A stretch of 64,000 bases of DNA from Gammaproteobacteria bacterium. Lineage in GTDB: Bacteria; Pseudomonadota; Gammaproteobacteria; Competibacterales; Competibacteraceae. How positions within the stretch are numbered: the first letter of the stretch is position 1; the number at the start of each line of letters is the position of its first letter. The stretch covers positions 1-64,000 of the forward strand of contig JADLEK010000052.1 of assembly GCA_020846135.1 (NCBI GenBank). Direction: 5' to 3'. Shown here piece by piece: positions 647-59,227 of the stretch. The notes beneath the pieces were generated by a model. That model had not been told where the DNA came from and searched no databases. It was given only the letters and a program-made list of their open reading frames with translations. The position numbers and the translations under genes were made by a program.

Positions 647-711
647 ACAACAAAATTCCTGGTAATCACCCTTGCAACTAGTTGTTTTAAAAGATTTTAT
701 AGCGCCGAGGC
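647..711 (+). promoter_or_regulatory. Probable CRISPR leader (proximal part)
   Basis: This AT-rich segment lies directly before the first repeat. The repeat 3' end (GATTAAGAC) resembles the 5' handle of mature crRNAs read in the plus direction, so transcription should enter from this side. The true leader may extend further left. No promoter hexamers could be assigned with confidence. Confidence 0.5.
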
Positions 712-3700
712 TTTCAGCACCTTGCCCTGATTAAGAAGGGATTAAGACATCGTCGCAGGGTAGTATGCGAACGATAAGTTATTTTCAGCACCTTGCCCTG
801 ATTAAGAAGGGATTAAGACGCGGCAATCGTGTCATCAGGGATAGAGTCTTTATTCTTTCAGCACCTTGCCCTGATTAAGAAGGGATTAAGACCCTTATTG
901 CCGTTATAGTATTGATTCGCAATATCTTTCAGCACCTTGCCCTGATTAAGAAGGGATTAAGACTCAGGATAGTACTTAAGATGCAATGCAAAGAACGATT
1001 TCAGCACCTTGCCCTGATTAAGAAGGGATTAAGACGCAATAGCCGCAGCGGCCTTGCCGGTCAGCTTGCTTTCAGCACCTTGCCCTGATTAAGAAGGGAT
1101 TAAGACAACCAGCCCGGCATCTTTCAGGTAGCTGCCATGCATTTCAGCACCTTGCCCTGATTAAGAAGGGATTAAGACGGGCATCCTGCGGCCATGCCGC
1201 AGGATGCGTGTTTTCAGCACCTTGCCCTGATTAAGAAGGGATTAAGACCTGACATTCTTCAGGGAAGTCAGGCCGGCGGCGGTTTCAGCACCTTGCCCTG
1301 ATTAAGAAGGGATTAAGACAAAGCCTTTCGGCTCAAGAGGATTTTTTAGCATCGTTTCAGCACCTTGCCCTGATTAAGAAGGGATTAAGACCCGCGATCA
1401 TTTCCTCCTGTTCGACATAGGCTTCGTTTCAGCACCTTGCCCTGATTAAGAAGGGATTAAGACAGTCGGGAGGGCGTTTCATGCGGCTTGTTGATGGGTT
1501 TTCAGCACCTTGCCCTGATTAAGAAGGGATTAAGACCGCTAAAAAGAACCTGACGCTGCCCTGTATTGCTTTCAGCACCTTGCCCTGATTAAGAAGGGAT
1601 TAAGACGGCGGTGTGTTCGGGGATGCCCGGCGAACCGGGCACTTTCAGCACCTTGCCCTGATTAAGAAGGGATTAAGACGGCGGGCGTGAACTGCGGGTC
1701 CGGCTCCTGGTGGAGTTTCAGCACCTTGCCCTGATTAAGAAGGGATTAAGACCGGGGCGGTGTGTTCGGGGATGCCCGGCGAACCGGGCTTTCAGCACCT
1801 TGCCCTGATTAAGAAGGGATTAAGACCCTGTATTGCTCAGGGCGTTGCCGTTTTTTAATCCTTTCAGCACCTTGCCCTGATTAAGAAGGGATTAAGACCT
1901 CGCGCCCGGCCCCACTCCCGCTGGCCGGAAATTTCAGCACCTTGCCCTGATTAAGAAGGGATTAAGACGCACAGAGCGCGTTCAAGGTACGACTGGTTTC
2001 AGCTTTCAGCACCTTGCCCTGATTAAGAAGGGATTAAGACTCGGATTCCCAATCATAGAAATTTTCAGGACTGCTTTCAGCACCTTGCCCTGATTAAGAA
2101 GGGATTAAGACCCGTCCGGCTGCTCGTAGCGCTTGACCTCGACATGTTTCAGCACCTTGCCCTGATTAAGAAGGGATTAAGACAGGCAGCGAAGGTGGTT
2201 TTGCCGACCCCATGCGGGTTTCAGCACCTTGCCCTGATTAAGAAGGGATTAAGACCGAGTCCCAAAAGATAGAAATGCCGGGAGTAAATTTTCAGCACCT
2301 TGCCCTGATTAAGAAGGGATTAAGACTCTACTTCGTTGTGGGATTGATTTATTACAACTCTTTTTCAGCACCTTGCCCTGATTAAGAAGGGATTAAGACT
2401 CCAACTCCTCAACACAATTGAACAAATTTTTGTTTCAGCACCTTGCCCTGATTAAGAAGGGATTAAGACATCTTTCTTGGAGGTGAACTCCGTGTGATCA
2501 ATTTTCAGCACCTTGCCCTGATTAAGAAGGGATTAAGACGATATAGCAGGGCATTGGATGTTCTCCAGGTGTTTCAGCACCTTGCCCTGATTAAGAAGGG
2601 ATTAAGACACAAGGATTGAAACAGATGACCCGTGCCAAAGTTGTTTCAGCACCTTGCCCTGATTAAGAAGGGATTAAGACGGGCGAGTCGCCAACAAAAG
2701 AAAAAGCTCGGTGTGTTTCAGCACCTTGCCCTGATTAAGAAGGGATTAAGACGCCGCGTAAATCGGCGAGTCGAATACCGCTTCGGTTTCAGCACCTTGC
2801 CCTGATTAAGAAGGGATTAAGACGTGTTCCTCAATAGAGGTTATTAAGGATAAATCCATTTCAGCACCTTGCCCTGATTAAGAAGGGATTAAGACGGAGA
2901 ACTCATCTCCATATCGTTGTCGAGGATCCTTTCAGCACCTTGCCCTGATTAAGAAGGGATTAAGACACATGCCAATAATGGTGTTGTGCATCACAACCGC
3001 TTTCAGCACCTTGCCCTGATTAAGAAGGGATTAAGACATCATGCTGGCGTCGTGAATAGTGATGCTGCCGTCTTTTCAGCACCTTGCCCTGATTAAGAAG
3101 GGATTAAGACCGTTGCCGCCTGAGCATCCTTGCTCACTGTAACCAGTTTCAGCACCTTGCCCTGATTAAGAAGGGATTAAGACCCAAAAGAAAAATCTAG
3201 TCTTTCAGCTCCTGTAATTTCAGCACCTTGCCCTGATTAAGAAGGGATTAAGACCGTCCGTTTCGGGGTCTATTCCGCCGGAGGGTTCGGTTTCAGCACC
3301 TTGCCCTGATTAAGAAGGGATTAAGACCGTCCACATGGACGGCAATCTGCTCGCCCGCATGGTTTCAGCACCTTGCCCTGATTAAGAAGGGATTAAGACA
3401 ATACCGCTTCGGCCCAGCGGGAATGTTTTTTCACTTTCAGCACCTTGCCCTGATTAAGAAGGGATTAAGACATAGGGGAATTCGGACATTTAAAGATCCA
3501 AGTGGTTTCAGCACCTTGCCCTGATTAAGAAGGGATTAAGACCTAAATCCACCAAACCCATATTCCTCAATAGTTTCAGCACCTTGCCCTGATTAAGAAG
3601 GGATTAAGACCTACGATCGACGGTCCAGCTTTGGCGTTTCATTGGTTTCAGCACCTTGCCCTGATTAAGAAGGGATTAAGACGTGATTGGCGTCGCAACC

Positions 3701-5968
3701 GCCCCCACGGGGGCCCTTTCAGCACCTTGCCCTGATTAAGAAGGGATTAAGACACGCCGGACAGACCTACTGAAACCCCAGGGAAAGTTTCAGCACCTTG
3801 CCCTGATTAAGAAGGGATTAAGACATGTATAATAAAACACATGCCAACGGTGATGGGTATTTCAGCACCTTGCCCTGATTAAGAAGGGATTAAGACCCAG
3901 CCGTACTGCTCTCTCTCGTCCGTGAGCGGTTTCAGCACCTTGCCCTGATTAAGAAGGGATTAAGACTCGTTGTCGAGGGTCCGCTTGATGATCAGCAACG
4001 TTTCAGCACCTTGCCCTGATTAAGAAGGGATTAAGACACCACATCGACATCGCATTCTACAACGTCGATGGCTTTCAGCACCTTGCCCTGATTAAGAAGG
4101 GATTAAGACGGACGAATCCAGCGGAAAATCGAGACCCTCTTCATGTTTCAGCACCTTGCCCTGATTAAGAAGGGATTAAGACGCGACAAGCGCGGCTGCA
4201 TCTGTTTCAAAAAGGCCTTTCAGCACCTTGCCCTGATTAAGAAGGGATTAAGACATCTCGTGGATCTGTTACAAAGTTTGACCTGCCCTTTCAGCACCTT
4301 GCCCTGATTAAGAAGTGATTAAGACCAAGATTCAAATGGACATAACCAAAGATCACAGTTTCAGCACCTTGCCCTGATTAAGAAGGGATTAAGACGCCGG
4401 CCCTGCTCGACATGGGAGCACCTCGAGGTGTTTCAGCACCTTGCCCTGATTAAGAAGGGATTAAGACGCAACCCAAAAGTCATCATCTTTAACCCTCCTA
4501 CTGTTTCAGCACCTTGCCCTGATTAAGAAGGGATTAAGACGGGGTAAACGTCTGAGTGTTGATCTTGCTAACCATTTCAGCACCTTGCCCTGATTAAGAA
4601 GGGATTAAGACTCCCGCTATATCCCAAGCGTCAGCCAACGGCTGACTTTTCAGCACCTTGCCCTGATTAAGAAGGGATTAAGACGGTAACCGGCGTTGCG
4701 TACTCCTCGCCGAGTTCGGCTTTCAGCACCTTGCCCTGATTAAGAAGGGATTAAGACCGTGGCTCCTGCCAAGAAACGCCCACCCGGCAGTTTCAGCACC
4801 TTGCCCTGATTAAGAAGGGATTAAGACTACGGGGTTGAAGATCATTGTTTTCTCCAACAAAATTTCAGCACCTTGCCCTGATTAAGAAGGGATTAAGACG
4901 AAGTTCCCGTCTCCACCAACTACATCCTGTGTTTCAGCACCTTGCCCTGATTAAGAAGGGATTAAGACGGCTTGATTCGCGGGAAGGTTCAGCTTCCCGT
5001 CGGTTTCAGCACCTTGCCCTGATTAAGAAGGGATTAAGACGGGCGGCGATAACCTTGATCAGCGCGTTGTCGAACGTTTCAGCACCTTGCCCTGATTAAG
5101 AAGGGATTAAGACGTGCTGCCAGACAGTGATGTCCGGCGCGTTCGGCGTTTCAGCACCTTGCCCTGATTAAGAAGGGATTAAGACTGTTCAGCCGATTCC
5201 ACATTCACCACCGCGCCATTTCAGCACCTTGCCCTGATTAAGAAGGGATTAAGACGCCATCATGCTGCCGACTTGCGCGACGCTAAAGCCGTTTCAGCAC
5301 CTTGCCCTGATTAAGAAGGGATTAAGACCGGTAGTCTTTACGGCCATTGCAATTCTCCGGTTTTTTCAGCACCTTGCCCTGATTAAGAAGGGATTAAGAC
5401 GTGGCGGCACCTGGACGGTGCCGCGGTCCGGCTTTCAGCACCTTGCCCTGATTAAGAAGGGATTAAGACATTATGTCCTCCTTTTGTTAAAAATGCTCGC
5501 TTTCAGCACCTTGCCCTGATTAAGAAGGGATTAAGACCTTTGGGCATACTGTAACTGCCACCACGCATCATCTTTCAGCACCTTGCCCTGATTAAGAAGG
5601 GATTAAGACACTGATAGTCCCCTGCACCGCACCCCCTGCCTTGCTTTCAGCACCTTGCCCTGATTAAGAAGGGATTAAGACTTCTGGCATATTGCAGTTT
5701 ACCAGCCCAGTATTCCTTTCAGCACCTTGCCCTGATTAAGAAGGGATTAAGACACCCTTCAATCCTAAAGTCTTGCGGGCAGCGGCTTTTCAGCACCTTG
5801 CCCTGATTAAGAAGGGATTAAGACTGACCACCCTTGCTTCCAAGGTTGCGGTAAGACGTTTTTCAGCACCTTGCCCTGATTAAGAAGGGATTAAGACTCC
5901 ACGCCGGGAAGCAGCGGCCAGGGAAGGAATATTTCAGCACCTTGCCCTGATTAAGAAGGGATTAAGAC
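712..5968 (+). CRISPR. Large CRISPR array, 74 repeats and 73 spacers
   Basis: A 37-bp repeat beginning TTTCAGCACCTTGCCC and ending GGGATTAAGAC occurs 74 times, first at 712-748 and last at 5932-5968. I counted starts one by one. Spacers are 31 to 37 nt, mostly 34-36. All copies are identical except the one at 4289-4325, which has T for G at 4316. The repeat has a weak CCCT...AGGG stem. The ending ATTAAGAC resembles the ATTGAAAC-type handle of type I and type III crRNAs, which sets the reading direction to plus. No cas gene is present in the window, so the effector and adaptation genes lie left of position 1 or elsewhere and the subtype cannot be fixed. Several spacers overlap one another in sequence or contain perfect inverted repeats (see findings). 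The last spacer-proximal repeat is intact, so no decayed trailer end is visible. Open frames inside the array are only translations of the repeat. Confidence 0.98.
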
Positions 5969-5993
5969 TCTTTATGCTGCGTCATGAATAATC

Positions 5994-21398: not shown

Positions 21399-23123
<1,725 letters not shown>

Positions 23124-49299: not shown

Positions 49300-49608
49300 G
49301 ACGCTACCGCCAGCATGATGATCTTGAAGATATAGAGCGGCAGACGTTTGATGCATTGAAAGTCGGTGTTCACGGTGGGTTTTCCAAAGGCTGAGGCAGA
49401 GTTGCGCGGACAAGCATGGTTCAGTCAGTCTAGCGACAAGCGCCGCAATCGTTCAACCCGTAATCAAGGCCCACCTTCCGACCCGCCGGACCAGGTTATT
49501 ACCCGCTGGAAAATCATGCCTATTGCTGTGCTATTTTGTCTTTGATCCGGCCGCCTGTGTGCGCCATCCGTCCGGTAGACGCTCCCATCGATTGAGGAGT
49601 AGCCGCTG

Positions 49609-50122
49609 GTGTACATCGCCAATCCGAATCTATGACACCATATTCAAATTTCTGCTGGAAGATAACGCGCTGGCTTATACCGAAGCGCCGATGATCCGAG
49701 TGCAGCGACAGTGTACCGATCTGGCGACCGGGGAACCGCTGGCGCAGAAGGAGCCGTTCATTGAAAGCTTGACTCATGACAGCTACATCATCCAGATTCC
49801 GCAGTTGCATGGACAGCATCGGACCGAGGTCGAGGCGATGTTGCAGCTCTTTGATCAGAATCGGATTAGCGGAGATCGGTATCGGCTGGTGATTGAGGAA
49901 GCCGAGATTCCCGAACGCTATCGGCCGCTGTTGCGGCGCTTGCAACGGGTGGTAGCCGAACCTGCGATTGCCGATGCGATGGATCTGGAGGACGAGGTGT
50001 TGCAGGAACTGCAGGATAGGGAACGCACGATAGAGCGCGAGCGGGCAGAAAAGGAAAAGGAACGGGAGCAGGCGGACCAGGGACGGGCCGAGAAGGAGCG
50101 CCTGTTAGTCTTGCTCAAATAG
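49609..50122 (+). pseudogene. PD-(D/E)XK nuclease-family transposase-like gene, internally deleted
   Basis: A GTG at 49609 preceded by GAGGAG opens the family-like start VYIANP, but one base shift is needed to continue into YDTIFKFLLEDN. The sequence then jumps to the C-terminal half (MIRVQRQCTDLATGEPLAQK, FIESLTHDSYIIQIPQLHGQ) and a charged coiled-coil tail rich in E, R and K. The nuclease core of about 120 residues normally between these parts is missing. The gene therefore carries a frameshift and a large internal deletion. The long open frame 49523-50122 starts out of frame with the family start. Confidence 0.72.
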
Positions 50123-50171: not shown

Positions 50172-51221
50172 CTACTCGGTTGGATCAACGGGATCGGCAG
50201 CCAGCATCACCGCCTGTACCTGGTTGCGTCCCAGGCGTTTAGCCTGGTACAGACATTCATCCGCCTGTTTAATCAGAGTATTCGGATCGGTTCCAGGGCT
50301 GGGAATCATCTCGGCGACTCCCAAGCTAACGGTGACATAGGGGCTGATGTCGCTCACTTCGTGGGGAATCGCCTGTTTTTCCACCTCGATCCGAATTTTT
50401 TCCGCCAGGTACGCGGCGCTATTGAGAGAGGTATCAGGCAGGGCGACAATGAACTCTTCACCGCCGTAGCGCGCCACAATATCGCCGGGCCGAGCCATCA
50501 TCTTCTTGATCGCCGCCGCAATTTGCTTCAGGCAATCATCGCCGCCCAAGTGTCCGTAGTGGTCATTGAAGGTTTTGAACCGATCCACATCCAGCATGAG
50601 CAGGGCGATCGGTTTTTTACCCCGCACCGCCCTGGCCCATTCTTCGTGATACCGCTCGTTGAAATAGCGCCGGTTGGCCAAGCCGGTGAGTCCGTCCAGA
50701 TTGGCTAACTGCAACAATTCCATATTGAGTTCTTCAAGCCGAATCTGGCTGGCCCGCAGCGCCCGATAAGCTTCATCGCGCTGCAACTTGTTGATATATG
50801 AGCTGGAGTGGTAGCGCAACCGGGCGATGAGTTCGAGTTTCTCCGGGGGCTTGACCAGATAGTCATTAGCGCCAGCCGCGAAGGCCTGGGCCTTGACCGC
50901 CGCGTCTTCGGTGCTGGACAGCATGACGATCGGCAGATCGCGCACGGTAGGTTGATTGCGGAACAGCCGGCACAGCATCAACCCGTCAATGTCGGGCATG
51001 ACCAGATCGAGCAGCACCACGGTAGGGCCGATTTTTTCAGCGGTGCTGATCGCCTCAGCCGGATTGATGCAGTAATGAAAGTTGATGTCGTGTTCGCTGA
51101 TCAACTGGCGGCGAATAATCTCGGCCACAAACGGTTGGTCGTCCACCAGCATCACCATGAGCAGACGCTCGGGGTAAGGCGATAGGACCGAGTCATGGGC
51201 GGTGCTAAGAGGTGTGGTCAT
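50172..51221 (-). CDS. Receiver-GGDEF diguanylate cyclase (PleD/WspR-like)
   Basis: From the ATG at 51221 the protein has 349 residues (a TTG at 51251 is less likely). The receiver domain (about 20-150) has VDDQPFVAEIIRRQL, phospho-aspartate in VVLLDLVMPDIDGL and lysine in DYLVKPPEKLEL. The GGDEF domain (about 185-345) has DVDRFKTFNDHYGH and the catalytic RYGGEEF. An I-site RPGD lies just before it, so product inhibition is likely. It makes cyclic di-GMP in response to phosphorylation. It lies about 240 bp from the giant kinase-GGDEF gene, divergently oriented. Confidence 0.94.
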   Translation of the reverse strand: MTTPLSTAHDSVLSPYPERLLMVMLVDDQPFVAEIIRRQLISEHDINFHYCINPAEAISTAEKIGPTVVLLDLVMPDIDGLMLCRLFRNQPTVRDLPIVMLSSTEDAAVKAQAFAAGANDYLVKPPEKLELIARLRYHSSSYINKLQRDEAYRALRASQIRLEELNMELLQLANLDGLTGLANRRYFNERYHEEWARAVRGKKPIALLMLDVDRFKTFNDHYGHLGGDDCLKQIAAAIKKMMARPGDIVARYGGEEFIVALPDTSLNSAAYLAEKIRIEVEKQAIPHEVSDISPYVTVSLGVAEMIPSPGTDPNTLIKQADECLYQAKRLGRNQVQAVMLAADPVDPTE

Positions 51222-51461
51222 GTTTGCCTGCGTATGCTCAACTTGCGCCAATGGAATGTTATAGGAGTCCGCGCCGGGATTAGCAGCATCAGTAAATTTT
51301 CCGGCGATAAGGGAGCCGCAGCGTGGACACCGGATCGTGCTTCTTGATCCAAGAAGCTGTTTTTGCCTTGATAAGCGCCATTTTTCATCCAGCCCACGAT
51401 TCCGGTCACAGGAAAGGTTTATTCTGGCGCTCTGGCCTCGATTTTACAGGATCATACCGAA

Positions 51462-54400
51462 ATGCTTTCCCTTAACGGATATATGGCGCTCGAGATGATT
51501 TACGAGAGCGATCACAGCCAAGTGTTCCGTGGCCAGCGCGAGTGTGATGGACTACCAGTTATCATCAAAACTCCGACGTCCCGAACCTTTTCCGTGCGGG
51601 AAAACCTGCGCTATCAAAACGAATACAACCTGCTCGCTGCTCTGTCGTTGAGCCGGATCATCCGGGTGTATGACCTGGTGCAGTACCACGCCGGGTTTGC
51701 CATTATTGAGGAGGATTATGGCGCTTGCGATCTGGCCGAGTGGCTGAATGGGAATCCTATGACCGTTGCCGGGTTCCTGCCGGTGGCGATCCAGATGGCG
51801 GAAGGTTTGGCGCAGATGCACGGGCAGCGCATCATCCACAAGGATTTGAACCCGGCCAATGTGTTGATCCATCCGGAAACAGTAGTGGTAAAACTGACCG
51901 ATTTCGGGTTGTCCACCCTGATCGGCGTCGAAACCCCGGAGGTCTGCGTCCCGGAACTCATTGAAGGCACATTGCCCTATGTGTCGCCCGAACAGACCGG
52001 GCGGATGAACCGAATGCTGGATTACCGCACCGATCTCTACTCGCTGGGGGTGTGCTACTACCAGATGCTGACCGGAACGCTACCTTTTGTCACCGCGGAC
52101 CCGCTGGAGATGGTGCATTGCCATATCGCCCGGTTGCCGGTGCCGCCGCAGGTGCTGAACGCGGCGATTCCCCCGTTGCTGTCCGATCTGGTGATGAAGC
52201 TGCTGGAAAAGAAAGCCGAGGATCGTTACCAGAGCGCGGGCGGGGTGCAATGCGACCTGGAAGCGCTCCAGTCTGGTGCCGCTGCGCCATCATTTACCCT
52301 GAAGTTGGGGCAACAGGACGTGTCCAATCATTTTCAGGTGGCCTACCGGCTCTATGGCCGGGACCCGGAAATCGCTCAGTTGTTGGAAGCCTTTGACCGA
52401 GCCGCGGCCGGGCGTTCCGAGTTGTTGCTGGTGGCAGGTTATTCCGGCATCGGTAAAACGTCGCTGGTCAACGAAGTGCAAAAGTCGCTGGTGCGCCAGC
52501 GCGGCTATTTCATCGCCGGTAAACACGATCAATTTCAGCGGGATATTCCATTTTCCGCGCTGATTCAGGCCTTTCGTCGCTTGGTTAATCAGTTGCTGAC
52601 CGAGCAGGAAACCCGGATTCAACACTGGCGGCAGGCGTTGCTGGACGCTCTGGGTCCCAATATCCGGGTCATTATCGACATGATTCCCGAAGTAGCCTGG
52701 ATAACTGGCCCCCAACCGCCGGTGCCGGAACTGGGGGCGACCGAAGCGCAGAATCGCTTCAGCCGGTCGTTTCAGCACTTCATCGCGGTCTTTGCCCGTC
52801 CCGAGCATCCGCTGGTGGTGTTTGTCGATGACCTGCAATGGGCTGACACGCCATCACTGGCGCTGATGGAAGTGCTGTGCGCGGACCCGGACAGCCGCAG
52901 TTTGCTGATGATCGGCGCTTATCGGGATAACGAAGTTTCCGCCTCGCACCCGCTGATCTTGACGCTCCACCGGCTCCGCGAGGCTGGTGCCCGGCTCCAC
53001 ACCGTACTGTTGGGGCCGCTGACGCTGGACGATTTGAATCGACTGGTTGCTGACACGCTCCATCAATCCACCGAGGCAACCGGGGAACTGGCGGGCCTGC
53101 TGCTGGAGAAAACCGGCGGCAATCCGTTTTTCGTCACCCAGTTCCTCCGCGAACTCCATGCCCGGGGGCTGTTCCGGCTGGACTCCACCCGACGGCGCTG
53201 GCAGTGGGATTTGGCGCAGATTCAGGCCGTCGGTATGACCGATAATGTGGTGGACCTCATGGTCGGCAAAATCAGCCGCCTGAGTCCCACCACCCAGCAG
53301 GCGCTGCAACTGGCCGCCTGTCTAGGCAATCGCTTCGCCCTGACGGTGCTGGCGACCATTTATGGCAAAAGCGCCCGTGACACCGGCAGCGATCTGTGGG
53401 AGGCGATTCAGGAAGGGTTGGTGGTGACCGCCCAAACCGAATTTCGCTTTCTGCATGACCGGGTGCAACAGGCGGCCTATTCGCTGATTGCCCCGGAAGC
53501 GCTCGGGCGGTTGCACCGGCAAATCGGTCGGCAACTCTGGCATCACGCCAGTCCCGCCGAACTGGAGGACCGCATTTTCGACATTACCGGGCATTTGAAT
53601 GCGGCGCTGGGACTGCTCGATGACCCGGATGAGCGCTTCCAGTTGTCCCTGCTCAATCTTCAGGCTGGACGCAAGGCCAAGGCGTCGACCGCCTATGAAC
53701 CGGCCCTGCGACATTTTCAGGCGGCCGCCGATCTGCTGACCGCTGACGCCTGGACCGCGCACTACCGGCATACCCTCGATATTTACCGGGAACGGGCGGA
53801 TGCCGCCTATCTGCTCGGTCAGTTTGCCGCCGCCGAAGCGGATATTGACGAAGCCCTGGCTCATGCCGCCGACCGCTATGATCAGGCGGAAATCTATCTG
53901 CAAAAAATCATCCAGTACAACAAGTTGGGCAAATACAACGAACTGGTGGACGTGGCCCGCGCCGCTCTGCAACTGTTTGGCGCAACCCTGCCGGACGCCC
54001 ATGACGCCGCCGGGTTGGAGGCGCATCTGGTCGAACATCTAGCCGACTACGACCGACTGCTCAACGGTCGCCCGATTGGCGAGTTGATTGCCCTGGCGGA
54101 TGTCGCGGATCGGGACCAGGATCAGATCATTCGGCTGATGGCCATTCTGACCGATGGGACCTACATCGCCATTCCCAGTCTGTTTCCCTATATCGTCATG
54201 GAAGTGGTCAACCGTTCGATGCGCTATGGCCACAACGCCATGTCGGCCATTGGTTTCGCCTGGGCCACGGTCATCATCGTCCAGCAATTCCGCAACTACC
54301 AGGATGCCTATGCGCTGGGTGGATTAGCGATGCGCCTGAATGAACGCTATCCCAATCCCCGCATTCGCGCCCAGGTCACGTTCCTGTACGCGGTCTGCGC

Positions 54401-56438
54401 CCTGCACTGGGTGGAACCGCTGACCGGGCAGATTGCCGTCTACCAGCAGGCATATCAGTACGGGATCGAGAATGGCAATCGGGTATTCGCCGGCTACGCC
54501 CGCACCATGATTCCCAAAACCACGCTGGCGGCGCAGACCGTGGACAAGGCGCTGGACGAGTGCGCGATCAGCCTGGCTTTTTACGCCCCGACCGGTTCGC
54601 CGTTTCTGATGAGCGAACGGTTCTGCTACCTGTTTTTGCAACGGCTCAAGGGTGAAGGTGCGGACCTGACCTCGCTCAGTACCCCGGACATTGACGAACA
54701 CGCCTGGCTGGAGCGCTGGCAGCAACCCGAAACCCGGTTTGGCCACGGCTTGGCCTATTTCCTCAACTTCAAGCTGCAACTGCTCTATCTGTTTGGCCAG
54801 TGGCGGGCGGCCTGGGATTTCGCCACCGCCCACGCCGACTGGATGCAATACATTCCAATTCTGTACGAAACCACCGTGTTTAGCTTTTACCGGGCGCTGG
54901 CCGGCGCTACGGTTCATGCCCAGGCGAATGGGGCAGAGCAGGCTGTCATCGTCGCGACCCTGCGCGAGGCCATTGCCAACTTTGCCCAATGGACCGCGCA
55001 CTGTCCCGACAACTTTGCCTGGCAGGAGCAACTGCTCCGGGCCGAGGCGGCGCGGTTGGAGCAGCGCCTGGACGACGCTTTCAGCCGGTACGATCAAGCG
55101 GCCGCCCTGGCCGACCAGTATCACTGTCCGCAGGGTATTGCCCTCAGCCGGGAACGGGCCGGGCGTCTTCATTTGGCACAAGACGCCCGGACGCCCGCCA
55201 AGCCGGTGCTGGAAGAAGCGGTCTTCCACTATTACCAGTGGGGCGCGACGGGCAAGGCCCAAGCGCTGAATCAGGAATTTTCCCGACTGTTGACTGAGGT
55301 GCGGATACCCTCGAACCGCCCTTCCAGTAACCTGTCCACAGCCACCCTCTCCACGCACAAGCTGGACCTGGATACCGTGCTCAAGGCGTCATTGGCGCTG
55401 TCCAGCGAGATTCAACTGGACAGCCTGTTGCAGAAACTGATGGCGATTGTGATTGAAAACGCCGGCGCTGATCGGGGCTATCTACTGCTGCCCGGCCCGG
55501 AGGACTGGCTGATCGTGGCCCAGGCCAGTGTTCTAAACGCCGAAGCCCGTCTGGAGCAGGTTCCGCTGGCGTCAGCCACCACGGTGGGCGCGACCCTGAT
55601 CCGCTACGTCATTCGTACCCGGCTGGCGCTGGCGCTGGACGACGCCTGCCAGGACCCGGTATTTGGCCGCGACCCCGAAGTGACACGACGCGAGGTGCAT
55701 TCGGTGTTGTGTTTGCCGTTGCTGACGCAGAGCCGTCTGAGCGGGGTGCTGTATCTGGAAAATGATCTGCTGGCCGGGGCGTTTGCGCCGGAGCGCATTC
55801 AGATTCTGCAAATGCTCCTGGCGCAGGCCGCGATTTCCATCGAAAACGCCCGGCTCTATGAAAATCTGGAGCGGCAGGTAGCGGAGCGCACCCAGGAATT
55901 GTCCGAGGCTAATCGCCAGTTGCAACAACTCAGCGAATGCGATGGACTAACCGGCATCGCTAACCGGCGCAAATTCGACACGGTCTGGGCCGCTGAATGG
56001 AAACGGGCATCGCGTCAGGGATTGTCGCTGGCCGTCGCCATGCTGGATGTCGATCATTTCAAGGCCTACAACGATCACTATGGGCATCAGGCCGGGGATG
56101 ACTGTCTGCGGCAGGTCGCCCAAGCCCTGGCCGGGGTGGTGCAACGGGCTGGCGATCTGGTCGCCCGTTATGGCGGTGAGGAATTCGTGGTGGTGTTGCC
56201 CGGATTAACCGGGCCAGAAGGGGTCGAGGTTGCGGAGAAACTCCGGGCAGCGGTGGCAGCCTGCCGGATTCCCCATGCCCATAACACCGCCGCCTCGGTC
56301 GTGACCGTCAGTATTGGCGTCGCCGCTATGCCGCCGGAACCGGAGGCTTCGCTGGAACGGTTGCTGGCGGCCGCCGACGCCGGTCTCTATGAAGCCAAAA
56401 ATGCCGGTCGCAACCGGATCAGGCTGGCGGGCGTTTGA
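51462..56438 (+). CDS. Giant Ser/Thr protein kinase-ATPase-GAF-GGDEF sensor
   Basis: This 1658-residue protein combines a eukaryotic-type Ser/Thr kinase domain (about 5-265; catalytic HKDLNPANVLI, DFG in LTDFGLST), an AAA_16-type ATPase (P-loop GYSGIGKTSLV at about 325), a long helical TPR-like region (about 600-1280), a GAF domain (about 1300-1470), a short coiled coil and a C-terminal GGDEF domain (RYGGEEF at about 1570 with an RAGD inhibitory site before it). It probably senses a ligand through GAF/TPR parts and makes cyclic di-GMP. The kinase HKD replaces the usual HRD, which still permits activity. It is the largest protein in the window. No cognate receiver is adjacent in the same direction. 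Confidence 0.92.
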   Translation: MLSLNGYMALEMIYESDHSQVFRGQRECDGLPVIIKTPTSRTFSVRENLRYQNEYNLLAALSLSRIIRVYDLVQYHAGFAIIEEDYGACDLAEWLNGNPMTVAGFLPVAIQMAEGLAQMHGQRIIHKDLNPANVLIHPETVVVKLTDFGLSTLIGVETPEVCVPELIEGTLPYVSPEQTGRMNRMLDYRTDLYSLGVCYYQMLTGTLPFVTADPLEMVHCHIARLPVPPQVLNAAIPPLLSDLVMKLLEKKAEDRYQSAGGVQCDLEALQSGAAAPSFTLKLGQQDVSNHFQVAYRLYGRDPEIAQLLEAFDRAAAGRSELLLVAGYSGIGKTSLVNEVQKSLVRQRGYFIAGKHDQFQRDIPFSALIQAFRRLVNQLLTEQETRIQHWRQALLDALGPNIRVIIDMIPEVAWITGPQPPVPELGATEAQNRFSRSFQHFIAVFARPEHPLVVFVDDLQWADTPSLALMEVLCADPDSRSLLMIGAYRDNEVSASHPLILTLHRLREAGARLHTVLLGPLTLDDLNRLVADTLHQSTEATGELAGLLLEKTGGNPFFVTQFLRELHARGLFRLDSTRRRWQWDLAQIQAVGMTDNVVDLMVGKISRLSPTTQQALQLAACLGNRFALTVLATIYGKSARDTGSDLWEAIQEGLVVTAQTEFRFLHDRVQQAAYSLIAPEALGRLHRQIGRQLWHHASPAELEDRIFDITGHLNAALGLLDDPDERFQLSLLNLQAGRKAKASTAYEPALRHFQAAADLLTADAWTAHYRHTLDIYRERADAAYLLGQFAAAEADIDEALAHAADRYDQAEIYLQKIIQYNKLGKYNELVDVARAALQLFGATLPDAHDAAGLEAHLVEHLADYDRLLNGRPIGELIALADVADRDQDQIIRLMAILTDGTYIAIPSLFPYIVMEVVNRSMRYGHNAMSAIGFAWATVIIVQQFRNYQDAYALGGLAMRLNERYPNPRIRAQVTFLYAVCALHWVEPLTGQIAVYQQAYQYGIENGNRVFAGYARTMIPKTTLAAQTVDKALDECAISLAFYAPTGSPFLMSERFCYLFLQRLKGEGADLTSLSTPDIDEHAWLERWQQPETRFGHGLAYFLNFKLQLLYLFGQWRAAWDFATAHADWMQYIPILYETTVFSFYRALAGATVHAQANGAEQAVIVATLREAIANFAQWTAHCPDNFAWQEQLLRAEAARLEQRLDDAFSRYDQAAALADQYHCPQGIALSRERAGRLHLAQDARTPAKPVLEEAVFHYYQWGATGKAQALNQEFSRLLTEVRIPSNRPSSNLSTATLSTHKLDLDTVLKASLALSSEIQLDSLLQKLMAIVIENAGADRGYLLLPGPEDWLIVAQASVLNAEARLEQVPLASATTVGATLIRYVIRTRLALALDDACQDPVFGRDPEVTRREVHSVLCLPLLTQSRLSGVLYLENDLLAGAFAPERIQILQMLLAQAAISIENARLYENLERQVAERTQELSEANRQLQQLSECDGLTGIANRRKFDTVWAAEWKRASRQGLSLAVAMLDVDHFKAYNDHYGHQAGDDCLRQVAQALAGVVQRAGDLVARYGGEEFVVVLPGLTGPEGVEVAEKLRAAVAACRIPHAHNTAASVVTVSIGVAAMPPEPEASLERLLAAADAGLYEAKNAGRNRIRLAGV

Positions 56439-56453
56439 GCAAACGGTTGGTGT

Positions 56454-57311
56454 CTACGTCTGCAGCAAAGTCGGCTTGCGGCGATAAAACACCGTCCGCA
56501 GATAACGGTGTGGTTCAAATTCCGGACACAGGTTGGCGATGGATTCGGTCGCGCCAATGATCAAGGCCCCCTCCCGGTCCAGCGTGCGCCCCAGGTTTTT
56601 GAACAGCCGAATCTTGTCCGCTTCAGTGAAGTAAATGGCGACATTGCGGCAGAAGATCAGGTCGAAGGGCGCTGGAAATGAGAACGGCTCCAGCAGATTC
56701 AGCCGGCGAAAGGAGGCGATGGCCCGTAATTCATCGCGGATCTTCCAGCGATCCCCGACCGGTTCAAAATACCGGCTCCATTGACTCAGCGTCAAGCCGC
56801 GCTCCAGGTCCAGGCGGTTGAAATGGGCATAGCTGGCCTGGGCAATCGCCTGATCGGAGATGTCGGTGCCGAGGATGCGGATGTCATAGCCGCTAAAGTC
56901 GCCCAGCATTTCCTTGAGAACGATGACCGTGCTGTAGGCTTCCTGGCCGGTCGAACAGGCAGCGCTCCAGATCCGGATCGGGGCCGGGCGCACGTTGCTC
57001 CGGCGACGGCGTTCGAGCAGTTCGGGAAGCAGCTTGTTGCGCAACAGGTCAAACGGCGCGGCATCCCGGAAAAAGGAGGTTTCGTTGGTGGTGATGGCGT
57101 CAATGACCTTACAGCGCAAGGCTTGGCTGAGGTCGGACCGGACCTTGACCAGCAATTCGCTAAACCCGACCGAGCAGGTCTCGCGCAGCAACTCGCCCAG
57201 GCGGGCCTCGATCAGGTAGCCCTTGGAGTCATCCAGGAACACCCCGCAGATTTCATGAATGTAGCGACTCCAGTCGGTTAATTCGTTACGGCTGAGGATC
57301 GGTCCGCTCAT
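56454..57311 (-). CDS. cheR: Chemotaxis-type protein methyltransferase CheR
   Basis: This 285-residue protein has the CheR N-terminal helical domain (about 10-70) and the SAM-dependent methyltransferase domain. Conserved parts are ITTNETSFFRDAAPFDLL, the SAM-binding IRIWSAACSTGQEAYS and FDLIFCRNVAIYFTEADK. It adds methyl groups to glutamates of chemoreceptors. It is the last gene of cheW-cheB-cheR; its ATG overlaps the cheB stop by four bases. Confidence 0.95.
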   Translation of the reverse strand: MSGPILSRNELTDWSRYIHEICGVFLDDSKGYLIEARLGELLRETCSVGFSELLVKVRSDLSQALRCKVIDAITTNETSFFRDAAPFDLLRNKLLPELLERRRRSNVRPAPIRIWSAACSTGQEAYSTVIVLKEMLGDFSGYDIRILGTDISDQAIAQASYAHFNRLDLERGLTLSQWSRYFEPVGDRWKIRDELRAIASFRRLNLLEPFSFPAPFDLIFCRNVAIYFTEADKIRLFKNLGRTLDREGALIIGATESIANLCPEFEPHRYLRTVFYRRKPTLLQT

Positions 57312-58405
57312 CGGGTTCCGCCCTGGACCGCCGCGATAATCCGTGCGGCAATCGCCTCCAGCGGCAACACTTCGTCCACGACCCCGGCATCAACCGCCGC
57401 CTTGGGCATGCCGTAGACGACGCAGCTGAGTTCGTGTTGCGCGATCACAAAACAGCCGTGTCGCTTCAACAGACGCAAGCCGATCGTCCCGTCATTGCCC
57501 ATGCCGGTCAAAATAACCGCCATCGCCTTCCCGGCAAACTGGTTGGCGACCGAGCGGAACAAGTAGTCCACCGCTGGCCGACAGTTATTTTCCGGCGGGT
57601 CGTCGGTAATCTGAATGATCCTGCGCCTGTCGCGCTCCGGGGCCAGCCGCATGTGCCGGCCGCCGGGGGCGATGTAAATCATGTTGGGTTCCAGACTGAC
57701 GCCGTGGGTTGCCTCACAGACCCGCAACGCACATTTGCCGGCCAGGTTTTCCGCCAGCGACTGGGTGAACAGCGGCGGCATGTGCTGGACGATGAGGACC
57801 GGAACGCCCAGATTGCCCGGCAGCGCCGGCAGCAGCCCGGCCAGCGCGTTCGGCCCGCCGGTGGAGACCCCGATCAGGACCATTTCCGGTTTAATCGTCC
57901 CCACCGGGCGGGGTGTGCAGGTACTGATCGCCACCGGTGGGGCGGGGCGGGGCGGGGCTGCTGCCGGGCTGGGCGGTAGCGCAGGATGCAGAATGTTGCG
58001 GACTTTGCAGCGCAGCAACTGGGCCTTGATCCGGGGAGCCAGCGCGACGCGCAACGCCTCGTAGCTTTGCTCAAAGCTGCTCAGGTCCGGCTTGGTGATG
58101 AAATCAAAGGCCCCCTTTTGCAAGGCCTGGATGGTCAGCCGTCCGCCCTGACTGGTGAAGGCGCTGACCACCAGCACCGCGACCGATTCCCTGGATTTTT
58201 GCAGGGCGTCCAGCACCTCCAGACCACTCAGTTCCGGCATCTCCATATCGAGGGTCAGCAGGTCAGGGGTCAATTCCCGCACCCGTTGCAACGCCTGTCT
58301 GCCGTTGACCGCCTGGCCGACCACTTCGACCTCGGGCAATGACGCCAAGGCTTCGGCAATCAGGCGGCGGAACACCACCGAATCATCAGCGACCACAACC
58401 CGCAT
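57308..58405 (-). CDS. cheB: Chemotaxis response regulator methylesterase CheB
   Basis: This 365-residue protein has an N-terminal receiver (about 1-125; VVADDSVVFRRLIAEAL, phospho-aspartate in LLTLDMEMPELSGL) and a C-terminal methylesterase domain (about 175-360) with catalytic serine in LIGVSTGGPNAL, histidine in IVQHMPPLFT and aspartate in ILTGMGNDGTIGL. A proline-rich linker joins them. It removes receptor methyl groups and counteracts CheR, with which it is translationally coupled. No receptor or CheA gene is in the window. Confidence 0.96.
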   Translation of the reverse strand: MRVVVADDSVVFRRLIAEALASLPEVEVVGQAVNGRQALQRVRELTPDLLTLDMEMPELSGLEVLDALQKSRESVAVLVVSAFTSQGGRLTIQALQKGAFDFITKPDLSSFEQSYEALRVALAPRIKAQLLRCKVRNILHPALPPSPAAAPPRPAPPVAISTCTPRPVGTIKPEMVLIGVSTGGPNALAGLLPALPGNLGVPVLIVQHMPPLFTQSLAENLAGKCALRVCEATHGVSLEPNMIYIAPGGRHMRLAPERDRRRIIQITDDPPENNCRPAVDYLFRSVANQFAGKAMAVILTGMGNDGTIGLRLLKRHGCFVIAQHELSCVVYGMPKAAVDAGVVDEVLPLEAIAARIIAAVQGGTR

Positions 58406-58420: not shown

Positions 58421-58891
58421 TCATGGTTTTGCGCCGATCCCGGTCTCGTCCCAGCGGAACAGCGCTGACGGGTCGAGGATGGCGATCAGCCGGTCGCCTT
58501 CGCGCCAGATGCCATGCAGATTGGCCCGCAGCGCCGGATCAATGCTGGCCGGCGGCGGGGCGATCCGGTCTTCGCTGACCACCATCGCGTCGGTCACGGC
58601 ATCCACCAGAAACCCAATCGGTTCGCCTTGCCATTCCATGATCAGCAGCCGGGCATCGGGACTCAGAGTAGCGCAGCCCAGCTCCAGCCGCACCGCCAGA
58701 TCGACCACCGTCACGATCCGGCCGCGCAGGTTGCGAATCCCGGCTACTGCCGCCGGCGCATGATGAACGCAGGTGAGGTTGCCGACCTTCACCACTTCCT
58801 GCACCAGTCGGGCGTTCACCCCAAAGGTGGCGTCACCCAGCATGAACGCGGTGATCAGCAGCCCTTCATCGAGGTCTTCATCATCGTGCAT
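58421..58891 (-). CDS. cheW: CheW-like chemosensory coupling protein
   Basis: From the ATG at 58891 the protein has 156 residues. An AGGAG site eight bases upstream fixes the start; the longer frame to 59020 runs into the restriction-enzyme fragment. The CheW domain shows LITAFMLGDATFGVNARLVQ, VAGIRNLRGRIVTVVDLAV and GFLVDAVTDAMVVSE. It should connect a chemoreceptor to a CheA-type kinase. It opens the cheW-cheB-cheR operon. Confidence 0.94.
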   Translation of the reverse strand: MHDDEDLDEGLLITAFMLGDATFGVNARLVQEVVKVGNLTCVHHAPAAVAGIRNLRGRIVTVVDLAVRLELGCATLSPDARLLIMEWQGEPIGFLVDAVTDAMVVSEDRIAPPPASIDPALRANLHGIWREGDRLIAILDPSALFRWDETGIGAKP

Positions 58892-58894
58892 CAC

Positions 58895-59227
58895 AGTTCT
58901 CCTGGATCTTCTCCGAAAATGCCTCCGGCCACCCGCCATATCACCAGATGACTGAGAATCCGCCGCAACACCACCATCGGCAGTGTCTTCTTCTCGAACT
59001 CGATAAAGAAAATCCCCCACGGCTGACCACTGGACAAGGGCCGGAGTTGATAAATCGCCCGCACCTTGGCCGCTTCCTTAATCCAGCAATCCCAGTTCCT
59101 CCAGCGCATACTCAAACGTCAAATCTTTAAAGCCGTATTACTCCAGCGGCCGATCAAGCTCAGCCTCCAGATACCGCACCAGTTGCTCGAAGGTTTTAAT
59201 CTGACACAGATTTTCAGCGGTAGGCAT
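58895..59227 (-). pseudogene. N-terminal fragment of an Eco57I-like restriction-modification enzyme
   Basis: The minus strand starts MPTAENLCQIKTFEQLVRYL and continues, in part in a shifted frame, with DLTFEYALEELGL, AAKVRAIYQLRPLSSGQPWG and IFFIEFEKKTLPMVVLRRIL. This is the N-terminus of large fused restriction-methyltransferase proteins. There is an in-frame TAA after LDRPLE, a stop after EELGLLD and a frame change. The remainder of the gene is missing, and the cheW ribosome site follows directly. It is a clear dead fragment of a second restriction system. Confidence 0.75.

What the first reader, a model, noticed from the sequence alone, without database searches (positions are those of the whole stretch)
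50172..56438. Protein kinase fused to ATPase, GAF and GGDEF next to a receiver-GGDEF protein
One chain links a eukaryotic-type kinase, a STAND-like ATPase region, TPR-like repeats, GAF and a diguanylate cyclase with inhibitory site. The divergent neighbour is a second cyclase with a receiver. This concentrates c-di-GMP control in one spot and suggests that protein phosphorylation and c-di-GMP are coupled in one molecule.
Basis: partly seen in the sequence, partly recalled or inferred. Interest (0 to 1): 0.52.

Follow-up and report, generated by a model that had tools for sequence, protein, structure and literature searches.

The report
Kinase-fused c-di-GMP enzyme beside WspR
A bacterium carries one very long signalling protein that joins a protein kinase, an ATP-driven switch, a sensor and a c-di-GMP-making enzyme, next to a second c-di-GMP enzyme of a known kind; the design is real but already known, and the more telling point is that the same front half occurs elsewhere with other enzymes at its end.

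Summary
Kinase catalytic residues, GGEEF and RxxD are present. The architecture is not new: a kinase-TPR-GGDEF chain was described in 2005 (PMC1262709, passages), and the front half is that of cyanobacterial HstK-type dual kinases. It is a new member of a known kind. The neighbour is a WspR (best PDB match 3bre, E 3.6e-106) of a split chemosensory cluster: in family relative G016, MCP-CheW-CheB-CheR-REC-GGDEF are collinear without the kinase gene. The pairing is local: none of 11 loci of the kinase's own clade has it or shares a neighbour gene with another. The kinase gene was not found in 3 congeners, its nearest kin (65-78%) are scattered over several classes, and a family clade is rejected (p-AU 2.35e-12). 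Output domains on this chassis were swapped often (20 changes on a 68-row quick tree), once inside the window's own clade; 21 of 84 kinases lack a catalytic residue.

The parts
51462..56438 (+). Kinase-STAND-like ATPase-TPR-like-GAF-GGDEF protein, 1658 aa
51513..52232 (+). Ser/Thr protein kinase domain (residues 18-257); K36, E54, H126-D128, N133, D147-G149 present, Gly-loop degenerate
52347..52913 (+). AAA_16 / STAND-like NTPase (residues 296-484), Walker A GYSGIGKTS and Walker B LVVFVDD
52914..55391 (+). Mixed helix-strand start, then TPR-like alpha-solenoid (residues 485-1310)
   Evidence: AlphaFold model pLDDT 87.8; best PDB fold 6mfv, STAND-TPR
55416..55841 (+). GAF sensor domain (residues 1319-1460)
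55938..56417 (+). GGDEF diguanylate cyclase (residues 1493-1652), GGEEF 1571-1575, RxxD inhibitory site R1562-D1565
50172..51251 (-). WspR-type response regulator: REC (res 33-145) and GGDEF (res 183-344), GGEEF and RxxD present
51252..51461 (.). 210-bp divergent intergenic region; no sigma-70-like match in it, one terminator-like match at 51339-51357
56454..57311 (-). CheR methyltransferase without TPR match; convergent with the kinase gene, 15 bp apart
57308..58405 (-). CheB methylesterase (REC-CheB)
58421..59020 (-). CheW coupling protein

Best explanation
The long protein is a cytoplasmic multi-input diguanylate cyclase on the HstK-type chassis (kinase, STAND-like ATPase, TPR solenoid, GAF). 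Most likely, ligand binding at GAF and/or the solenoid and ATP exchange in the ATPase change its oligomeric state, and this brings the C-terminal GGDEF domains, joined to GAF by a helical linker, into the catalytic dimer; product binding at RxxD shuts it off. The kinase domain is probably active here and tunes the switch in cis or signals in parallel. The gene arrived by horizontal transfer and landed between cheR and the WspR gene of a chemosensory cluster; WspR itself should be driven by the CheA (now on another contig), so the two cyclases most likely answer different inputs. Shown: domains, residues, gene order, phylogeny. Inferred: all activities, oligomerisation, ligand, direction of control.
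For: Domains and motifs; helical solenoid with a STAND-TPR protein as best fold; chassis 37-40% identical to cyanobacterial AAA / Ser-Thr / histidine-kinase proteins over about residues 1-1480; WspR identity (the other chemosensory REC-GGDEF of the genome is PleD-like); collinear MCP-CheW-CheB-CheR-REC-GGDEF without the kinase in G016, and CheA-MCP-CheW-REC-GGDEF in G028; own CheA on C10 82% identical to the G028 CheA, followed by three MCP-like frames (Pfam confirms CheA and the first MCP); patchy kin and rejected family clade.
Against: No activity, ligand or oligomer was tested. The fold match to 6mfv is partial (TM 0.32/0.38). The STAND assignment rests on AAA_16 plus nSTAND hits below their cut-offs. 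The kinase's role is unclear because a quarter of relatives have lost catalytic residues. 'Insertion' rests on one clean collinear genome (G016, whose CheA is broken in the assembly); in G026 the WspR gene lies elsewhere, so the ancestral order is not certain, and old duplication with many losses could mimic transfer.
Confidence: 0.55

Rival explanations
1. One reading: the kinase phosphorylates its own chain (GAF, linker or GGDEF), and this phosphorylation is the switch for c-di-GMP synthesis.
For: Catalytic residues intact in the window; in clade members with both ends readable in one frame, kinase and GGDEF go together except in L004.
Against: 4 of 17 family kinases with a GGDEF output, and 21 of 84 overall, lack K, D(HxD) or D(DFG); L007 in the same clade reads HKN; the same kinase half sits before unrelated outputs.
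Confidence: 0.2
2. The kinase protein and the WspR/CheW-CheB-CheR genes form one functional module, the kinase feeding into WspR or the chemosensory proteins.
For: Gene proximity: 210 bp head to head with WspR, 15 bp tail to tail with CheR.
Against: None of the other clade loci carries these neighbours; relatives keep che-wspR genes without the kinase; 39 GGDEF matches in the genome make chance adjacency likely.
Confidence: 0.12
3. The long protein is a degenerate or silent passenger gene.
For: Horizontal, isolated gene; no sigma-70-like match in the 210-bp gap, which is weak evidence.
Against: Uninterrupted 1658-codon frame; all five segments are about equally conserved, 74-79% to the G013 copy; catalytic motifs kept.
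Confidence: 0.08

Closest known systems
Kinase + 6 TPR + GGDEF protein of Clostridium thermocellum (PMC1262709, 2005; passages read)
   Same: N-terminal Ser/Thr kinase, TPR-type middle, C-terminal GGDEF, 1826 aa; the paper already infers a role in c-di-GMP production
   Different: The passages name no AAA/STAND or GAF in it; its sequence was not compared here
HstK (Anabaena alr2258) and the cyanobacterial cbSTKIII dual kinases (PMC2176072, passages read)
   Same: Kinase and GAF in one chain; plasmid-borne cyanobacterial relatives are 37-40% identical to the window over about residues 1-1480
   Different: Output is a histidine kinase, not GGDEF; HstK itself was not aligned
Fungal Mak2/Mak3 (PMC5383687, passages read)
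   Same: N-terminal Ser/Thr kinase-like domain and GAF before a signalling output
   Different: Histidine kinase plus receiver output, eukaryote; no sequence compared here
WspR of Pseudomonas (PDB 3bre, 3i5a)
   Same: REC-GGDEF over the full length with the receiver Asp, GGEEF and RxxD region aligned
   Different: Sits with CheW-CheB-CheR (no TPR match on CheR), CheA and MCPs on another contig; not the wspA-F order
STAND proteins with TPR sensors (PDB 6mfv)
   Same: ATPase followed by a TPR solenoid; best fold match
   Different: The entry title names no kinase, GAF or cyclase; match partial

Membership tests
HstK-type dual-kinase chassis | N-terminal Ser/Thr kinase, AAA ATPase and GAF in one chain with homology over the whole front half | tested here: met
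HstK-type dual kinase proper | C-terminal histidine kinase (HisKA/HATPase) | tested here: not met
   C-terminus is GGDEF, no HATPase hit; it shares the chassis but is not a dual kinase
Kinase-TPR-GGDEF proteins | Kinase at N-terminus, TPR-type repeats, GGDEF at C-terminus | tested here: met
   TPR by fold only, no Pfam TPR hit
Ser/Thr kinase, active form | beta3 Lys, HxD Asp, Asn, DFG Asp | tested here: met
   activity itself not testable here
Diguanylate cyclase, active form | GG(D/E)EF and RxxD I-site | tested here: met
   GGEEF and RAGD; activity not testable here
STAND NTPase | P-loop NTPase, winged helix, helical sensor | tested here: inconclusive
   AAA_16 strong, nSTAND1/6 below cut-off; fold match partial
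WspR | Full-length REC-GGDEF much closer to WspR than to PleD | tested here: met
   3bre E 3.6e-106 against PleD about 1.5e-55
Wsp system | Conserved wspA-wspF synteny with wspR (as stated in PMC8552884, passages) | tested here: not met
   Only CheW-CheB-CheR and WspR here, kinase between; CheA and MCPs on C10

The most novel reading that the evidence does not exclude
The kinase-STAND-TPR-GAF front half is a general-purpose input machine on to which evolution has repeatedly plugged different enzymes (diguanylate cyclase, histidine kinase, class III cyclase, phosphatase), and it drives whichever enzyme it carries by a common oligomerisation step in which the kinase domain serves mainly as a nucleotide-sensing or docking part, so that its catalysis is optional.
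Probability: 0.35. Interest if true: 0.55.

Novelty: new member of a known kind. Interest (0 to 1): 0.36.

Why it matters
One chain with a Ser/Thr kinase and a diguanylate cyclase is a natural test object for whether eukaryote-type phosphorylation and c-di-GMP are coupled. The clade offers built-in controls: a 70%-identical chassis with a histidine kinase output (L004), a copy with HKN in place of HKD (L007), and copies whose RxxD is altered (L006, L030). More broadly, the repeated swapping of outputs suggests a common mode of activation that could be tested by comparing natural proteins with the same front half and different ends.

Tried and rejected
Considered and rejected: (1) a conserved two-gene module of kinase-GGDEF and REC-GGDEF: no clade locus has the pair. 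(2) A complete Wsp operon at this place: order and CheR-TPR missing; a PleD-like REC-GGDEF chemosensory operon with CheR-TPR lies on C77 instead. (3) Remnants of MCP or CheA in the window beside CheW: none found with tblastn of G028 and G016 proteins. (4) Pseudokinase in the window: rejected. (5) Profile search of the TPR-like middle against PDB sequences: nothing useful (one hit at E 0.31). (6) Literature on the exact architecture: searches returned no paper, one unrelated paper (listing only), fourteen papers of which none was opened; so no claim is made that the kinase-AAA-GAF-GGDEF order is unpublished. (7) DNA at the supposed insertion edges was printed and looked at by eye only, without result.

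Limits: the 32-row tree was a quick one in place of an unfinished careful one; the 68-row tree was quick and without the mixture model, with several long branches, so its counts of changes are approximate. Counts score two candidates per genome, so they are lower bounds. In one search the duplicates L003, L041 and L040 and places with under 400 query residues were dropped; output classes come from small HMMs made from these loci (the seeds match by construction), 14 of 92 rows stayed unclassified ('none') and 10 were truncated; one search used the 68 classified rows. In one search, 8 rows without an alignable kinase were excluded. L010 (Methylococcaceae MAG) is nearly identical to betaproteobacterial MAG copies and may be mis-binned.
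Full report
What is there. The two frames named in the finding exist at the stated coordinates. The + strand frame 51462-56438 encodes 1658 aa with Pkinase (18-257), AAA_16 (296-484), GAF (1319-1460) and GGDEF (1493-1652); the - strand frame 50172-51251 encodes REC-GGDEF. The middle of the long chain gives no Pfam TPR hit, but an AlphaFold model made from an alignment of 31 sequences (residues 485-1310, mean pLDDT 87.8) has a short helix-strand part first and then a helical solenoid; its best PDB match is a STAND protein with TPRs (6mfv, E 1.7e-6, TM 0.32/0.38).

Residues. In a kinase alignment of 84 family members the window has K36, E54, H126, D128, N133, D147, G149 and E177; the glycine loop reads YESDHSQVFRG without the usual glycines, much as in its close kin. 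The cyclase has GGEEF and, five residues before it, RxxD. In the family as a whole, 21 of 84 kinases lack the beta3 lysine, the HxD aspartate or the DFG aspartate (4 of 17 with GGDEF output, 9 of 30 with histidine-kinase output, 2 of 12 with a class III cyclase, 0 of 3 with SpoIIE, 6 of 22 unclassified or truncated; one of these, L009, has a gap there and not a substitution). Within the window's clade L007 has HKN and L004 DFW.

The neighbour. phmmer against PDB chains puts the REC-GGDEF at WspR (3bre, E 3.6e-106; PleD about 1.5e-55). CheR, CheB and CheW follow on the same strand as WspR, beyond the kinase gene. In family member G016 (L046) MCP, CheW, CheB, CheR and REC-GGDEF lie collinear and close together, with no gene between CheR and REC-GGDEF, and a CheA, broken in that assembly, lies upstream. 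In congener G028 (L050) the order is CheA-REC, NIT-HAMP-MCP, CheW, REC-GGDEF; in G026 (L047) CheW-CheB-CheR run into an aminotransferase and homoserine dehydrogenase, and the WspR gene is elsewhere beside a class II tRNA synthetase (L048). In G006 (L051) a 69%-identical REC-GGDEF ends a cluster with CheR-TPR, CheA-REC and a CheB match. In the window's own genome the matching CheA (82% to G028's) and three MCP-like frames lie on contig C10 (CheA and the first MCP confirmed by Pfam). The simplest reading is a chemosensory cluster with WspR as output that has been split, with the kinase gene placed in reverse between CheR and WspR. A second, PleD-like REC-GGDEF ends another chemosensory operon on C77.

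Origin of the long gene. 0 of 3 congeners and 6 of 39 family genomes (the own one included) have a match at E 1e-100 or better, of which, besides the own one, only G013 is close (78%). The G013 copy lies on a contig of the same length (23386) as the Candidatus Contendobacter odensis contig of L003 and gives the same match, so I take G013 for that species. Close kin (65-78%) occur in Thiobaca trueperi and in MAGs named Rhodocyclaceae, Rhodoferax, Nitrosomonadales, Methylococcaceae, Geobacteraceae, delta- and betaproteobacterium; more distant ones (56-58%) in Solidesulfovibrio and a Helicobacteraceae MAG. On a careful tree the G013 copy groups with Thiobaca, not with the window (100/99), and a clade of the two copies from this family is rejected (p-AU 2.35e-12). 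Of the 15 loci compared (11 of the clade, the window, and three more distant ones; L005 shows no neighbour at all), no neighbouring gene is shared by two; the only cross matches involve kinase or GGDEF parts. Horizontal transfer of a single gene explains this best; old duplication and loss is not excluded.

How common the architecture is. In 398 genomes sampled over the phylum, 28 (own included) have the chassis at E 1e-150, and 2 of 30 further places run to the end of GGDEF. In 369 genomes of the class, 14 (own included) have it, and 6 of 20 further places run to the end. The two samples overlap in part. On plasmids, at least 5000 records match some part and 209 hold a place covering 80% or more, all under 60% identity; a Legionella lytica plasmid matches over residues 4-1658 under a protein annotated as EAL-containing. 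A kinase-TPR-GGDEF protein was described in 2005 (PMC1262709, passages).

Swapped outputs. Of 92 chassis proteins (window included), 32 were classed as ending in a histidine kinase, 21 in GGDEF, 12 in a class III cyclase, 3 in SpoIIE, 14 unclassified and 10 truncated. Pfam on the ends of 10 chosen proteins agrees for 8: L004 and L025 histidine kinase; L012, L015, L022 and L063 guanylate cyclase; L014 SpoIIE; L006 GGDEF; L017 and L028 showed GAF only, and L028 had been classed as cyclase on a weak partial match. On a 68-row tree without the output columns the four labels need 20 changes (least possible 3; shuffled mean 30.5), and GGDEF alone 11, of which starred branches force 7 (quick tree). 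One swap lies inside the window's own clade: L004, 70% identical in the front half, ends in a histidine kinase and has no GGDEF.

Mechanism. I favour a STAND-type switch: signal at GAF and solenoid, nucleotide exchange in the ATPase, assembly, dimerised GGDEF, product inhibition at RxxD. That STAND proteins assemble on ATP and that GGDEF works as a dimer is recalled knowledge of these families, not a result here. The frequent exchange of outputs and the frequent loss of kinase residues fit a mode of control that does not depend on phosphorylating the particular output; this is inference. WspR next door should answer to its CheA. Whether the two inputs meet beyond the common c-di-GMP pool is unknown, and gene proximity is weak evidence for it.

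Verdict. The useful additions are the WspR identity of the neighbour, the local nature of the pairing, the horizontal history and the swapped outputs.

Noticed in passing
window 711-5969: Large CRISPR-like array: a repeat of about 37 bases at about 72-base spacing with differing spacers, tens of copies; it explains the ORF-poor, lower-GC start of the window. Calling it CRISPR is my reading of the pattern.
   Followed up: partly
L055 3986-12636 (own genome C77): A second chemosensory operon with CheR-TPR, MCP, CheA-REC, CheB match and a PleD-like REC-GGDEF, followed by KdpD.
   Followed up: partly
L004 491-5644: Geobacteraceae MAG copy, 70% identical in the front half, whose GGDEF is replaced by a histidine kinase and whose DFG reads DFW.
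   Followed up: yes
L006, L030: Close clade members in which the inhibitory RxxD reads RAGE or RSSE.
   Followed up: no
window 49523-50122: 199-codon frame between WspR and homoserine dehydrogenase without any Pfam match at E 0.001.
   Followed up: no
window 21410-21458: Nine-base tandem repeat at the 3' end of the - strand cpn60 frame, likely a Gly-Met-rich chaperonin tail (tail reading recalled).
   Followed up: no
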